Of a stretch of 64,000 bases of DNA, positions 8,169-24,205 are shown one piece after another (positions within the stretch are counted from its first letter, which is position 1; every line of letters starts with the position of its first letter). The translations under genes were made by a program, and so were the position numbers. Origin of the DNA: Cellulosimicrobium sp. Marseille-Q4280. GTDB lineage: Bacteria > Actinomycetota > Actinomycetes > Actinomycetales > Cellulomonadaceae. Where the stretch lies: positions 1 through 64,000 of the forward strand of contig NZ_CALPBY010000002.1 of assembly GCF_943181405.1 (NCBI RefSeq), written 5' to 3'. Below the pieces are notes generated by a model. That model was given only the letters and a program-made list of their open reading frames with translations, was not told where the DNA came from and made no database searches.

Positions 8169-9173
8169 ATGTCCTCTGACCTCACCGTCGGCTACGCAGC
8201 CATGCTCGAGCAGTTCCACCCCACCGAGGCCGTCGAGCTCTCGGCGTACGCGGAGTCGCACGGCTTCTCCGGCACGATGGCGGCCGACCACTTCCAGCCC
8301 TGGGTCCCCGCCCAGGGGCAGTCGTCGTTCGTCTGGAACGTCCTGACCGCGCTCGGCGAGCGCACGTCCGGCGACCTCGGCCCGGGCGTCACCGCCCCGA
8401 CGTTCCGCTGGCACCCGGCGATGGTCGCGCAGGCCTCCGCGACGCTCGCCGCGATGTACCCCGGCCGGCACTGGCTCGGTCTCGGTTCCGGAGAGGCGCT
8501 CAACGAGCACGTCGTCGCGGGCTACTGGCCCGAGGCGCCCGAGCGCATCAACCGCATGTTCGAGGCCATCGACGTCATCAAGAAGCTCTTCACGGCCTCG
8601 CTCGCGGGCAAGGACGTCAAGCACTCCGGGCAGTTCTACAAGATGGAGTCCACGCGGCTGTGGACGATGCCCGAGGTCCCGCCGGAGATCCTCGTCGCCA
8701 CCGCGGGACCCGTGACCGCCAAGCGTGCGGGCCGCCACGCCGACGGTCTCATCACGGTCGGCGCACCCCTCGAGAAGATCTCCATGCTGTTCGGCAAGTT
8801 CGACGACGGCGTCCGCGAGTCCGGGCGAGACCCGCAGTCCATGCCCAAGGTCCTCCAGCTCCACCTCTCCTGGGCGGAGACGGACGAGGAGGCGCTCGCC
8901 AACGCGATGCACGAGTGGCCCAACGGCGGCATGAAGTTCCCCAAGGCCGACATCCGCTCGCCGCACGACTTCGAGCAGATGGCCAAGCTCGTGCGCCCGG
9001 AGGACTTCGAGGGCCGCATGGTCATCTCGGCGGACCCCGACGAGCACCGGGCCTACATCCAGAAGTTCGTCGACCTCGGGTTCGACCGCATCTACCTCCA
9101 CAACGTCGGGCGCAACCAGCGCGAGTGGATCGAGACGTTCGGGCGCGACGTCCTGCCGAAGCTCTCCCGATGA
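8169..9173 (+). CDS. F420-dependent glucose-6-phosphate dehydrogenase family LLM oxidoreductase
   Basis: 334 residues, close to the 336 of mycobacterial Fgd1. Luciferase-like TIM barrel that uses coenzyme F420. DHFQPW at residues 40-45 and GSGEALNE at 106-113 are shared with Fgd1, as are [13 protein letters not shown] and ASDPDE-type segments (here TAPTFRWHP and SADPDEH). Fgd1 oxidises glucose-6-phosphate and makes F420H2 for other reductases. This protein clearly belongs to the same family (the G6PDH family of F420 LLM enzymes), but the true sugar substrate is not proven. Its stop overlaps the start of cofE (ATGA), so the two are translationally coupled. It is therefore the likely source of F420H2 for the other F420 enzymes in this window. 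Confidence 0.82.
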
Positions 9174-10093
9174 CCGGACCCGGGTCCGTGCCCGACGGCG
9201 CGCCGCCGGAGGGTGCGCCGGCCCGCCTGGTCGCGTGGGCGCCGTCGGGCCTGGGGGAGGTGCACCCCGGCGACGACCTCGCGGTGCTGGTCGGCGACCT
9301 GCTCGCGCGGGACGCGCTCGCGGGCGGGGAGCCGCTCGCCGAGGGCGACGTCGTCGTCGTGACGAGCAAGATCGTGTCCAAGGCGGAGGGTCGGGTGGTC
9401 GCTGCCGACGACCGCGAGCAGGCGATCTCCGACGAGACGGTGCGTGTCGTCGCGACGCGCGAGCGGCCCGGTCTCCCACCGCTGCGGATCGTCGAGAACC
9501 GCCTGGGGCTCGTCATGGCGGCCGCGGGCGTCGACGCCTCGAACACGCCCGAGGGGACGGTCCTGCTCCTGCCGCTCGACCCGGACGCCTCCGCCCGCTC
9601 GCTGCGCGCCGCGCTGCGCGGCCGGTTCGGCGTCGAGCGCCTGGGCGTCGTCGTGACCGACACGATGGGCCGCGCGTGGCGCGACGGCCTCGTCGACGTC
9701 GCGATCGGCGCGGCGGGGGTCGCGGTCGTCGACGACCTGCGGGACGGCGTCGACGCCCACGGGCGACCACTGTCGGTCACCGTGACCGCCGTCGCCGACG
9801 AGGTGGCGTCGGCGAGCGAGCTCGTGCGCGGCAAGGCGGACGGGCGCCCGGTCGCCGTCGTCCGCGGGCTCGGTGCGCACGTGACCGCCGACGACGGGCC
9901 CGGCGCCCGCGTGCTCGTCCGAGCGTCCGCGGACGACCTGTTCCGCGAGGGGAGCGCGGAGGCGCACGCGCGGGGACGCGAGGACGGGTACGCGGAGGGG
10001 TACCGCGACGGCTTCGCCGAGGCGTTCCGCGAGGGCGGGGCCGGTCCGCAGGTCGACCCGCAGGGCCGGGACGGGCGAAACGCCTGGCCGTGA
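9170..10093 (+). CDS. cofE: Coenzyme F420-0:L-glutamate ligase (CofE), single-domain
   Basis: 307 residues, ATG overlapping the previous stop. CofE adds glutamates to F420-0 using GTP. Diagnostic segments: [17 protein letters not shown] (about residues 58-74), RERPGLPP, the [21 protein letters not shown] block and [17 protein letters not shown]. The C-terminal nitroreductase domain that makes mycobacterial FbiB bifunctional is absent. In its place is a tail of about 45 residues with a Gly/aromatic repeat ([21 protein letters not shown] region). No cofC, cofD/fbiA or fbiC is seen in the window. The pairing with an Fgd-type gene and a distant F420-0-type ABC transporter suggests that F420-0 is taken up and only the tail is made here. 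Confidence 0.88.
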
Positions 10094-10107
10094 CGGGGGC
10101 GAGCGCC

Positions 10108-22038: not shown

Positions 22039-23117
22039 GCCGTCCTCCTCCCGCGCCACAGGAGCAGCGCGAACACGGGCGCGCCGATCGCGGCGGTGAC
22101 GATCCCGACGGGCAGCTCGCGCGGCGCGAAGACCGTCCGGGCGAGCGTGTCCGCCCACACGAGGAACGACGCGCCGAACAGCGCCGAGAGCGGGAGGAGC
22201 AGCCGGTGCCGCGCACCGGTGAGGAGCCGCACGGCGTGCGGCAGGATCAGCCCGACGAACCCGATCGAGCCCGACTGCGAGACCAGCGCCCCGGTGAGCA
22301 GCGCGACGCCGACGAGCAGGACCCAGCGCACGCGCTGGACGTCCACCCCGAGGGCCGACGCCGCGGTGTCGCCGAACGTGAACGCGTCGAGCACGGACCC
22401 GGTCGACGCGAGAAGGGTTCCGAGCACGAGCGTCGCGACGCCCGCGACGGCGACCGACGTCCACGTCGCTCCCGCGACGGAGCCCATGAGCCACGACAGG
22501 ATCTCGCGGTACGAGTCGCCGGTCGCCGACCAGAAGATGACGAAGCTCGTCGCCGCGGCCGCGAGCTGGCTCACGGCGAGCCCGGCCAGCACGGTGCGGC
22601 TCGGTGTCAGGGTGCCGACGGCGCCCGCGAGCGCGAGCGTCGCGACGAGCGCGACGACTGCTCCGCCGAACGCCGCGACGGGGAGCAGGACGGTCCAGCC
22701 CACGACGAGCACGAGCACCGCCCCGAGCGAGGCACCGGAGGACAGCCCCAGCAGGTACGGGTCCGCGAGCGGGTTGCGCGTGAGCGACTGCATGACGACC
22801 CCGCACACCGCGAGCCCCGCGCCGACCGCCGCGGCGGTGAGCACGCGCGGCAGGCGCAGCTGCCACACCATGCCGTCCTGCAGCGGGCCGAGCGGCTCGA
22901 GACCGAGGAGCCCGCCGAGGCCGAGGTGGGACGCGACCGACCGCCACACGTCGCCCACCGCGAGGTCCGCCGGGCCGATCGTCACGGCGACGAGCACGGT
23001 GACGACGAGGAGCACGACGCTGCCCGGCACCCACCACGCGGCGCCCCGACGCGCGGACGTGCGCCCGCCCGCGGAGGGCGCGGGGGCGGCGTCGGGCCGG
23101 GTGCGCAGCGTCGTCAC
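22035..23117 (-). CDS. ABC transporter permease (FecCD type), proposed F420-0 importer
   Basis: 360 residues, GTG overlapping the stop of the binding-protein gene. About ten transmembrane segments of the BtuC/FecCD type. Conserved GLAVCGVVMQSLTRNPLADP and LGLSSGASLGAVL in the first half; GSIGFVGLILPHAVRLLTG, the ATPase-contact loop, near residue 285; and ELPVGIVTAAIGAPVFALLL at the end. Works as a dimer with the ATPase and the lipoprotein receptor. It cannot be distinguished from siderophore or cobalamin permeases by motif alone; the F420-0 call rests on the cassette. Confidence 0.78.
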   Translation of the reverse strand: MTTLRTRPDAAPAPSAGGRTSARRGAAWWVPGSVVLLVVTVLVAVTIGPADLAVGDVWRSVASHLGLGGLLGLEPLGPLQDGMVWQLRLPRVLTAAAVGAGLAVCGVVMQSLTRNPLADPYLLGLSSGASLGAVLVLVVGWTVLLPVAAFGGAVVALVATLALAGAVGTLTPSRTVLAGLAVSQLAAAATSFVIFWSATGDSYREILSWLMGSVAGATWTSVAVAGVATLVLGTLLASTGSVLDAFTFGDTAASALGVDVQRVRWVLLVGVALLTGALVSQSGSIGFVGLILPHAVRLLTGARHRLLLPLSALFGASFLVWADTLARTVFAPRELPVGIVTAAIGAPVFALLLWRGRRTA

Positions 23118-24205
23118 AGGTCGAGCGCCTCCAGCTGTGCGGCGAGGTCCACCACGGCGTCGACGTTGCGCACGCCGGCCTCCGTCGCCGGGAACGGGAT
23201 CGTCAGGTAGCGGCCCTCGCGGACCGCGGTCATCTCGGCGGTCGCGGCGTTCGACTCGAGTCGCTCGATCTTCGCCTCCGCGCTGTTCCACGTGGCGTCG
23301 ACGAGCACGAGGACGTCGGGGTCCGCCGCGATAGCCTCCTCCCACGCGTAGGAGGTCCACGTGTCCTCGACGTCGGCGGCGACGTTCTCCAGCCCGACCG
23401 CGTCCATGATCATCTGCGGCGCGCCGATGCCCGCGCCGACGTACGGGATGTCGTCGCCCGACGAGTACCAGAGAGCGGTGAGCCCGCGGTCGTCGGGCGT
23501 GACGCCGTCGAGGGTCGCGCGCTGCTCCGCCACCAGGTCCGACGCCGCGTCCTGGGCGTCGAAGATCTCGCCGACCTCGGTGATCTCGGCGAAGACGTCG
23601 TCGAAGGTCAGCGGGTCGGGCATGTACGCAGGCGCCTTGCACGCGGCGGGGGAGACGTACGTCGCGACCCCGAGCTGCGCGAGCGTCTCGCGGTCGCCCG
23701 CGCCGTCCGCCGTGAGGTTCGACTCCCAGCCCGCGTACACGAGGTCGGGCTCGAGCCCGAGGACGGCCTCGGCGCCGGGCACCTGGTCGGACAGCGGCTC
23801 GGCGACGGCGGGGACCTGCGCCGCGGTGTCGGCGAGCGAGTCGGGGACCGGTCCGTCGAGGAACGCCGACGCGACGATCCGGTCGCCCAGGCCGAGCGCG
23901 AGGAGCATCTCCGTGGTGCTCGACTTGATCGTCACGACGCGCTCGGGCGCCGCGTCGAACGTCACCTCGAACCCGCAGTCGTCCACCGTGAGCGGGTAGC
24001 CCGTCGCCGTCGTGCCGTGGCCGGCGGTGCCCGACGGCGCGGCCTCGCCGTCCGTGGTCGGGTCGCCCTCGCCCGCGGTCCCCGACGAGCACGCGGCGAG
24101 CAGGGCGGCGAGCCCGACGGCGCCCAGGGACGTCGCGGCGGCGCCACGGCGAGGACGGGGACGGCGGGGGTGCAGGACGGCGGACGAGGTGCGGCGTGAC
24201 GGCAC
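23114..24205 (-). CDS. ABC transporter substrate-binding lipoprotein, proposed F420-0 receptor
   Basis: 363 residues from a GTG with GGAG about 9 nt upstream. Lipoprotein signal with Arg-rich start and lipobox LAAC (Cys39), so anchored outside the membrane. Class III binding-protein fold. The stretch VVTIKSSTTEMLLALGLGDRI, followed by ASAFLDGPVPDS, LEPDLVYAGWESNL and a conserved Cys in VSPAACKAP, resembles the small clade proposed to bind F420-0 rather than siderophore receptors. That clade occurs in actinobacteria that keep cofE but often lack the rest of F420 synthesis, the pattern seen in this window. An alternative would be an iron-chelate or cobalamin receptor. Confidence 0.72.
   Translation of the reverse strand: MPSRRTSSAVLHPRRPRPRRGAAATSLGAVGLAALLAACSSGTAGEGDPTTDGEAAPSGTAGHGTTATGYPLTVDDCGFEVTFDAAPERVVTIKSSTTEMLLALGLGDRIVASAFLDGPVPDSLADTAAQVPAVAEPLSDQVPGAEAVLGLEPDLVYAGWESNLTADGAGDRETLAQLGVATYVSPAACKAPAYMPDPLTFDDVFAEITEVGEIFDAQDAASDLVAEQRATLDGVTPDDRGLTALWYSSGDDIPYVGAGIGAPQMIMDAVGLENVAADVEDTWTSYAWEEAIAADPDVLVLVDATWNSAEAKIERLESNAATAEMTAVREGRYLTIPFPATEAGVRNVDAVVDLAAQLEALDL

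What the first reader, a model, noticed from the sequence alone, without database searches (positions are those of the whole stretch)
8169..24205. Coenzyme F420 salvage-and-use set: Fgd-type enzyme, CofE, two F420 reductases and an F420-0-type ABC importer within 16 kb
Seen: Fgd-family LLM enzyme (8169) coupled to a single-domain CofE (9170), a Ddn-like protein (16547), a Rv3369-type PPOX protein (20684) and, convergent 11 bp away, a binding protein-permease-ATPase operon (21124-24205). Known: TIGR03868/03869/03873 define a proposed F420-0 transporter cassette in actinobacteria, many of which retain only cofE of the F420 pathway. Inference: this organism may import F420-0 and only add the glutamate tail. 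Physiological import of F420-0 has to my knowledge only been proposed from genome context, so this locus is a good test case.
Basis: partly seen in the sequence, partly recalled or inferred. Interest (0 to 1): 0.75.

Follow-up and report, generated by a model that had tools for sequence, protein, structure and literature searches.

The report
Importer for an F420 vitamin precursor
This soil bacterium appears unable to make the light-absorbing core (Fo) of the redox vitamin F420 but keeps the later steps, and the uptake pump in this window most likely brings in Fo released by other microbes rather than the later intermediate that databases assume.

Summary
The gene set is real. Binding protein, permease and ATPase pass the NCBIfam models of the proposed "F420-0" importer; CofE and a PPOX protein are confirmed; the "Fgd" and "Ddn" labels are only family-level.

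The cargo inference is probably wrong for this organism (a Cellulosimicrobium). Its genome has cofC, cofD and cofE but no recognisable Fo synthase (cofG/cofH). Importing F420-0 would leave cofC and cofD idle; importing Fo uses all three.

Of 199 genomes (this one and 198 relatives), 113 carry the importer. Of the 100 carriers without an FbiC-like protein, 71 have CofD and 29 only CofE. In 31 of 175 loci cofD follows the importer ATPase by one gene length.

CofD presence changes 13 to 17 times on the binding-protein trees. Five binding-protein residues, four at the start of one helix, change in parallel towards Ser/Lys/His/Arg. They predict CofD in 54 of 60 further genomes (24 of 29 in new genera, where other columns do as well). 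The window protein is of the CofD-bearing (Fo) type.

Best reading: one deazaflavin importer family with two cargo classes, Fo (here) and F420-0. Nothing has been tested at the bench.

The parts
8169..9173 (+). F420-dependent LLM-class oxidoreductase (TIGR03557 family, Fgd-like), overlapping cofE by 4 bases
   Evidence: TIGR03557 285 bits over cut-off 210; Fgd TIGR03554 219 bits, below cut-off 420
9170..10093 (+). cofE, F420-0:L-glutamate ligase, single domain
   Evidence: TIGR01916 216 bits over cut-off 181; aligned with solved CofE chains 7uld, 2phn, 2g9i
16547..16948 (-). weak Ddn-like deazaflavin-dependent nitroreductase relative; possible F420 user
   Evidence: TIGR00026 40.6 bits, below cut-off 46.35; no Pfam hit
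20684..21112 (+). PPOX-class F420-dependent oxidoreductase, Rv3369 type; convergent with the importer, 11 bases away
   Evidence: TIGR03667 156 bits over cut-off 125
21124..22038 (-). importer ATPase
   Evidence: TIGR03873 375.9 bits over cut-off 372.4; start overlaps the permease end by 4 bases
22035..23117 (-). importer permease
   Evidence: TIGR03869 526.9 bits over cut-off 437.35; start overlaps the binding-protein end by 4 bases
23114..24205 (-). importer substrate-binding lipoprotein; proposed here as Fo-type
23261..23296 (-). codons 263-274 (ATWNSAEAKIER; residue 1 = codon at 24082, precursor residue 42): the stretch in which positions 263, 267, 270 and 274 switch with CofD presence
   Evidence: strand 257-263 and helix 268-277 in the model; translation checked
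23783..23785 (-). codon 100 (Gln here; Lys or Arg in 25 of 29 CofD-less carriers and 25 of 84 CofD carriers of the first survey), fifth switching position

Best explanation
The cassette is an ABC importer for deazaflavins, and in this organism its cargo is most likely Fo (7,8-didemethyl-8-hydroxy-5-deazariboflavin), which F420-making neighbours release. Shown here: the importer family, the presence of cofC, cofD and cofE, and the lack of any recognisable Fo synthase. Inferred: a lipoprotein captures Fo outside the cell, and the permease and ATPase carry it in. CofC and CofD then attach the phosphorylated three-carbon acid to give F420-0 (or its dehydro form, which a reductase would have to reduce). 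CofE adds the glutamate tail, and the LLM, PPOX and related enzymes use the product. Relatives that have also lost cofC and cofD import F420-0 with the same machinery. Their binding proteins have repeatedly gained Ser/Lys/His/Arg, mostly at the start of one helix, which plausibly grips the phosphate and carboxylate that Fo lacks.
For: 1. The gap found in the pathway is the Fo synthase: cofD and cofC present, cofE present, cofH and cofG not found, genome 99.99% complete. CofD aligns with solved CofD and FbiA and keeps the Asp of the PDLD motif.
2. Of 100 importer carriers without an FbiC-like protein, 71 have cofD, 68 of them hits for cofC, cofD and cofE; 29 have cofE alone.
3. Among 128 cofD genomes: importer only 71, Fo synthase-like only 31, both 13, neither 13. 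By genus majority 17, 19, 3 and 5, Fisher p 4.8e-5 (not corrected for kinship between genera).
4. cofD follows the importer ATPase on the same strand in 34 of 175 loci, in 31 of them with stop codons 953 to 1095 bases apart, one gene length. There it would be useless for imported F420-0. The 46 CofDs found inside fetched importer loci all keep the Asp motif (42, the other 4).
5. Five binding-protein positions track cofD: 6.4 to 7.4 of 9 independent pairs agree and 0 to 0.2 go against; the next column reaches 3.9 net. Three or more CofD-less-type letters occur in 1 of 115 cofD carriers and 53 of 56 others; as one trait, 7.9 of 10 pairs agree, none against, median p 0.008 (letters chosen after seeing the data). 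Hold-out: 54 of 60 correct. The window is CofD-type.
6. Fo is reported as typically found in culture supernatants of F420 producers, at micromolar levels (PMC11917521, passages seen).
Against: Twelve genomes (13, less G001, whose importer gene is split over two contigs) have cofD but neither importer nor FbiC-like protein. So Fo can be got in another way: diffusion (a passage of PMC11917521 calls Fo membrane permeable), another carrier, or an unknown synthase. Thirteen carriers have both importer and an FbiC-like protein. In this genome cofC and cofD are on another contig, not linked to the importer. A dehydro-F420-0 reductase was not searched for genome-wide. The single-position pair tests reach median p 0.016 at best (263, 274) and about 0.06 to 0.07 for 267, 270 and 100. 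In one search some pretend traits had more columns at net 4 or above (0 to 13, against 5 for CofD), though fewer at 6. In genera new to the training set the five residues got 24 of 29, 14 of 1000 random column sets did as well, and the five next-ranked columns got 27 of 29 (49 of 60 over all). Lys100 and Ser263 also occur in part of the cofD carriers. No pocket contacts could be measured, as models are returned without coordinates. No ligand, uptake or growth data exist in any call.
Confidence: 0.72

Rival explanations
1. One reading: the cassette imports F420-0 here too, and CofE alone is needed; cofC and cofD are relics or serve repair.
For: Family models are named for F420-0; 29 of 113 carriers keep only cofE; the protein identical to PDB 4mlz comes from such a genome.
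Against: cofC and cofD pass their models in this genome and cofD is kept in 71 of 100 carriers that lack an FbiC-like protein. cofD follows the importer genes in 34 of 175 loci. The window's binding protein has CofD-type residues.
Confidence: 0.12
2. One promiscuous importer takes Fo and F420-0 alike by gripping the deazaflavin head; gene content, not the binding protein, decides which is used. (Overlaps with the best explanation: Fo would still be the cargo here, so the figures are not exclusive.)
For: The same cassette serves both genome classes; the eight pairs of proteins of the two classes compared are 60 to 78% identical, and 56 positions are near-invariant over all 113.
Against: Five positions switch in parallel with cofD and predict it in further genomes.
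Confidence: 0.3
3. The organism makes Fo by an unknown, non-FbiC synthase, and the importer has another role (for example recapture of leaked Fo).
For: Twelve cofD genomes have neither importer nor FbiC-like protein.
Against: Among cofD genomes the importer is rarer where FbiC-like proteins occur (13 of 44) than where they do not (71 of 84).
Confidence: 0.1
4. The cassette is an ordinary cobalamin, haem or siderophore importer next to F420 genes by chance.
For: Fold and distant sequence kinship to BtuF, haem and siderophore binding proteins.
Against: All three subunits pass the F420-specific cut-offs, while siderophore EitA scores 138 (cut-off 640) and BtuF 27 (cut-off 234). No Rfam family reached its gathering score in the window. 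cofE lies nearby on the opposite strand in 59 of 175 loci.
Confidence: 0.03

Closest known systems
Putative F420-0 ABC importer, TIGR03868/TIGR03869/TIGR03873 (NCBIfam)
   Same: All three subunits over the curated cut-offs; same gene order; neighbours cofE and an LLM enzyme.
   Different: As I recall the TIGRFAM text (not retrieved here), the family was defined on five genomes, four of them keeping only cofE. This genome and 83 others of the 113 first-survey carriers also keep CofD, so Fo is the better cargo for most.
Jonesia denitrificans periplasmic binding protein, PDB 4mlz
   Different: 4mlz is identical over 291 residues to the protein of G053, a genome without cofC, cofD or an FbiC-like protein, and has the CofD-less residue set (score -10.3 against +8.8 for the window).
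FbiA/CofD, FbiD/CofC, CofE/FbiB F420 pathway
   Same: cofD, cofC and cofE over their cut-offs.
   Different: No FbiC (CofG/CofH) found; CofE lacks the FbiB reductase domain.
Vitamin B12 importer BtuFCD and haem importers
   Same: Same importer type and fold.
   Different: Scores far below those families' cut-offs; gene neighbourhood is F420.
Putative ABC transporter beside the 3PG-F420 genes of P. rhizoxinica
   Same: An ABC transporter suggested to move an F420-type cofactor (review passage, PMC8498797).
   Different: Suggested there as an exporter of the finished cofactor to a fungal host; sequences not compared here.

Membership tests
TIGR03868/03869/03873 importer cassette | binding protein over 392.4 bits | tested here: met
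   484.7 bits
TIGR03868/03869/03873 importer cassette | permease over 437.35 bits | tested here: met
   526.9 bits
TIGR03868/03869/03873 importer cassette | ATPase over 372.4 bits | tested here: met
   375.9 bits, narrowly
F420-0 salvage organism (cofE as only F420 biosynthesis gene) | no cofC, cofD, cofG or cofH | tested here: not met
   cofD and cofC present; cofG and cofH not found
Fo salvage organism (proposed here) | cofC, cofD, cofE present, Fo synthase absent, deazaflavin importer present | tested here: met
Fo salvage organism (proposed here) | lipoprotein binds Fo; uptake feeds F420 | not testable with these tools
   needs binding and growth assays
CofE (TIGR01916) | over 180.65 bits | tested here: met
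   216.3 bits
Fgd (TIGR03554) | over 420 bits | tested here: not met
   219 bits; belongs to the wider TIGR03557 family (285, cut-off 210.4)
Ddn family (TIGR00026) | over 46.35 bits | tested here: not met
   40.6 bits
Rv3369-type PPOX (TIGR03667) | over 125.3 bits | tested here: met
   156.2 bits
B12 importer (BtuF/BtuC models) | over curated cut-offs | tested here: not met
   BtuF 27 of 234; BtuC 238.6 of 461 and 226.5 of 334

The most novel reading that the evidence does not exclude
The 'F420-0 importer' family is a deazaflavin importer with two cargo classes. In this Cellulosimicrobium and most carriers it imports Fo for a CofC-CofD-CofE pathway that lacks the Fo synthase. Each time cofC and cofD are lost, the binding protein is remodelled at the start of one helix (positions 263, 267, 270, 274) and at position 100 to hold the phospholactate of F420-0. 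This would be a repeated, residue-level switch of vitamin-precursor specificity and would imply a widespread exchange of Fo among actinobacteria.
Probability: 0.5. Interest if true: 0.82.

Novelty: new variant of a known kind. Interest (0 to 1): 0.7.

Why it matters
F420 drives low-potential reductions in actinobacteria and is, as I understand the field, mostly treated as made by its users. If these organisms live on Fo from neighbours, F420 becomes a shared vitamin with a leaky precursor as its currency, and database labels name the wrong cargo for most carriers. The claim can be tested with two purified proteins (this one and the one of PDB 4mlz), and the five residues give a ready prediction. 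An Fo importer may also help enzyme technology. In the listings of my searches of the open PMC library (titles and starts of abstracts) I saw no paper on an F420-0 or Fo importer or on Fo salvage; most subscription papers and all bioRxiv preprints are outside that library.

Tried and rejected
Permease first tested in the wrong frame (protein 6, no hit); redone.

A PAAT-type (SBP_bac_3) ABC cassette lies in line with the LLM gene and cofE in G024, G048 and G109, all cofD genomes with neither importer nor FbiC-like protein. I considered it as a second Fo importer. Rejected: close relatives of its binding protein occur in 66 of 199 genomes, among them many F420-importer carriers.

No Rfam family (so no FMN or cobalamin riboswitch) reached its gathering score in the window.

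Neighbourhoods in seven genomes with cofD but neither importer nor FbiC-like protein were listed (G024, G115, G121, G124, G136, G151, G129). This used a crude GC3 gene caller and my own query proteins, and only the G024 cassette was scanned with Pfam, so an alternative importer there is not excluded. The loci L151-L153 and L156-L159 were not read one by one.

Net-charge control: binding-protein cores are slightly less acidic without CofD (mean -28.6 against -31.9); no control proteins were run, so I do not lean on it.

In the pair test the five columns, and the letter groups within them, were chosen from 255 columns on the same data. Controls: 12 of 29 eligible columns of the same protein used as pretend traits gave 0 to 2 columns at net 6 or more (5 for CofD) and 0 to 13 at net 4 or more (5 for CofD); and the hold-out. 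The hold-out shares genera with the training set. In genera without a training row the five residues got 24 of 29, the nearest neighbour 20, 1000 random sets a mean of 14.9 and a maximum of 27, and the five next-ranked columns 27. So the exact residue set is less certain than the link itself.

Rows dropped: G312 and G301 (75% and 69% complete); G178 and G116 (importer below cut-off) from then on. G409 and G317 (below cut-off) were not fetched. In one search's genus count G001 was counted as a carrier; it was not.

My H class counts 24 genomes over the CofH cut-off plus 20 below it with E under 1e-50; many but not all of the 20 lie in open frames of 800 residues or more, and whether they are Fo synthases is not shown. 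Some CofC hits counted as present lie below their cut-off or are pieces.

The file-level test of the whole genome was not possible; absence of cofG and cofH rests on model and protein searches.
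Full report
WHAT IS IN THE WINDOW. A binding lipoprotein (23114-24205), permease (22035-23117) and ATPase (21124-22038) on the minus strand overlap by four bases each. They score 484.7, 526.9 and 375.9 bits against TIGR03868, TIGR03869 and TIGR03873, all over the curated cut-offs, the ATPase only just. cofE (9170-10093) passes TIGR01916, and the PPOX gene (20684-21112) passes TIGR03667. 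The LLM gene (8169-9173) passes the broad TIGR03557 but not the Fgd model, and the Ddn-like gene (16547-16948) is below its cut-off. The window comes most likely from a Cellulosimicrobium: ten named Cellulosimicrobium loci match the binding protein at 85 to 93% identity (one Sphaerisporangium record at 89%, Krasilnikoviella and Isoptericola up to 87%), and contigs of two same-genus handles (G002, 237,762 bases; G016, 831,553 bases) have the exact lengths of C. funkei and C. cellulans contigs.

THE PATHWAY IN THIS GENOME. The genome is 99.99% complete. It has cofD on contig C1 (302 bits, cut-off 257) and cofC directly next to it (126 bits, cut-off 105). CofD aligns over nearly its whole length with solved CofD (3c3d) and FbiA (6uvx), and the Asp of the PDLD motif, which corresponds by my count to Asp46, reported as important for catalysis (passage in PMC8498797), is kept. 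The Fo synthase is not found: no CofH match at E 0.001, only an 18-bit scrap for CofG, and nothing better than E 0.02 to the CofH half of a relative's FbiC. Importing F420-0 would leave cofC and cofD without a substrate; importing Fo uses all three enzymes. A reductase for dehydro-F420-0 was not searched for genome-wide; a weak candidate lies beside cofC.

SURVEY OF RELATIVES. In 199 genomes, this one included, the importer is over cut-off in 113, CofD in 128, CofE in 154, CofC in 116, CofH in 24; a further 20 have lower-scoring FbiC-like proteins. Of the 113 carriers, 68 have hits for CofC, CofD and CofE but no FbiC-like protein; 29 have CofE alone; 13 have everything (4 over the CofH cut-off, 9 lower-scoring); and 3 are like the first group with one hit missing from my lists (G003, G007, G077). 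CofC and CofD are both present or both missing in 112 of the 113 (G003 is the exception). Among the 128 CofD genomes the importer and the Fo synthase tend to replace each other: 71 importer only, 31 synthase-like only, 13 both, 13 neither. Fisher p is 8e-10 for genomes, and 4.8e-5 for genus majorities. These tests are not corrected for kinship. In an extra set of 62 genomes chosen for their importer (58 over cut-off), 31 have CofD and 2 have FbiC-like proteins, both low-scoring.

GENE ORDER. cofD lies within 5 kb of the binding-protein gene in 29 of 84 importer-plus-CofD genomes. In 34 of 175 loci cofD follows the ATPase on the same strand; in 31 of these the two stop codons are 953 to 1095 bases apart, one gene length, and in 3 there is room for another gene. 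Thirty of the 175 loci were held with only 1.5 kb of flank, so this is a lower bound. Fifteen loci show binding protein-permease-ATPase-cofD facing LLM-cofE (four of them with cofC between). The same arrangement without cofC and cofD is seen in 24 loci of CofD-less genomes. The 46 CofDs found inside fetched importer loci all keep the Asp motif.

TWO TYPES OF BINDING PROTEIN. On the tree of 115 binding proteins, being without CofD needs 14 changes of state, 11 of them forced by well-supported branches. With 113 and 171 proteins, CofD presence needs 13 and 17 changes. Nine well-supported independent pairs in the set of 113 differ in CofD. Of 255 columns tested, five stand out (274, 263, 267, 270 and 100; net 6.2 to 7.4 of 9 pairs) and the next reaches 3.9. 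Twelve other columns used as pretend traits gave 0 to 2 columns at net 6, though 0 to 13 at net 4. In the first survey CofD-less against CofD carriers have Ser263 in 28 of 29 against 11 of 84, Lys or His at 270 in 23 of 29 against 6 of 84, Lys or Arg at 100 in 25 of 29 against 25 of 84, and Ser267 in 23 of 29 against 14 of 84; position 274 shifts from Arg, Ala and Leu to Val and Ile. In the model, strand 257-263 is followed by helix 268-277, so four of the five lie at the start of one helix, beside Asp262, Trp265 and Lys271, which are invariant in all 113. A helix start with Ser, Lys and His is a usual anion site (general knowledge), and F420-0 differs from Fo by a phosphate and a carboxylate. 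Trained on the first 113, the five residues gave the right CofD state in 54 of 60 further genomes (29 of 31 with, 25 of 29 without); 300 random five-column sets averaged 34.7 with a maximum of 49, and the nearest sequence gave 48. For genera without a training row the figure is 24 of 29, and the next-ranked five columns did better there (27) although worse overall (49 of 60). I take the link between binding-protein type and CofD as well supported and the exact residue set as provisional. With composite letters, chosen after seeing the data, 114 of 115 CofD proteins and 53 of 56 others fall on the expected side. The window protein is clearly of the CofD type (score +8.8) and the Jonesia protein of the other type (-10.3). 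The Jonesia protein has a solved structure, PDB 4mlz (identity over 291 residues; organism from the entry title).

MECHANISM. Shown: genes, families, gene content, gene order, sequence covariation. Inferred: Fo outside the cell is bound by the lipoprotein, carried in by permease and ATPase, turned into F420-0 by CofC and CofD, given its tail by CofE, and used by the LLM and PPOX enzymes nearby. A supply is plausible: passages of PMC11917521 state that Fo is typically found in culture supernatants of F420 producers, cite micromolar levels for Streptomyces flocculus, Mycobacterium smegmatis and Rhodococcus opacus, and cite an older paper that Fo is membrane permeable. The last point also offers a way for the twelve genomes with CofD and neither importer nor FbiC-like protein.

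WHAT IS KNOWN. The family name and the idea of F420-0 import are NCBIfam's. The TIGRFAM note that four of five founding genomes keep only cofE is recalled, not retrieved, and the paper I recalled as its likely source is not held. In the review PMC8498797 (passages seen) the words salvage, uptake and scaveng do not occur in the main text; its one transporter passage concerns a possible exporter of 3PG-F420 in P. rhizoxinica. Searches for F420-0 transporter, TIGR03868, Fo salvage and F420 salvage found no paper, and searches for F420 auxotroph, FO uptake, deazaflavin uptake or transporter and F420 uptake or import found only three papers on other subjects. The new points are the split of carriers into Fo-type and F420-0-type, the importer operon with cofD, and the matching residue switch.

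VERDICT. Observation confirmed; interpretation partly right. A known but, as far as I saw, untested kind of importer, with the cargo for this organism most likely Fo.

Noticed in passing
L050:6773-7384 (contig C1 of this genome): A nitroreductase-family gene overlaps the 3' end of cofC by a few bases, in the opposite direction; it resembles the FbiB C-terminal domain weakly (50 bits, cut-off 249.55) and BluB (56 bits, cut-off 150). It could be the stand-alone reductase of dehydro-F420-0 that a CofE without the FbiB domain would need.
   Followed up: partly
L141, L154, L155 (G024, G048, G109): In these genomes, which have CofD but neither importer nor FbiC-like protein, a polar-amino-acid-type ABC cassette lies in line with the LLM gene and cofE.
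   Followed up: partly
L145 (G115): cofC, cofD, cofE and the LLM gene are kept close together, but no importer over cut-off and no CofH match were found in this genome.
   Followed up: partly
G033:C24:72642-73529, G080:C94:123133-124029, G103:C14:72465-73343, G176:C14:62777-63673 and others: A second group of binding proteins scores about 190 to 235 bits against TIGR03868, half of the true family; cargo unknown.
   Followed up: no
G022, G034, G054, G089, G098, G107, G111, G114, G119: FbiC-like proteins in long open frames score only 221 to 307 bits against TIGR03551 (cut-off 374) in these nine genomes that also keep the importer; perhaps reacquired or divergent Fo synthases.
   Followed up: no
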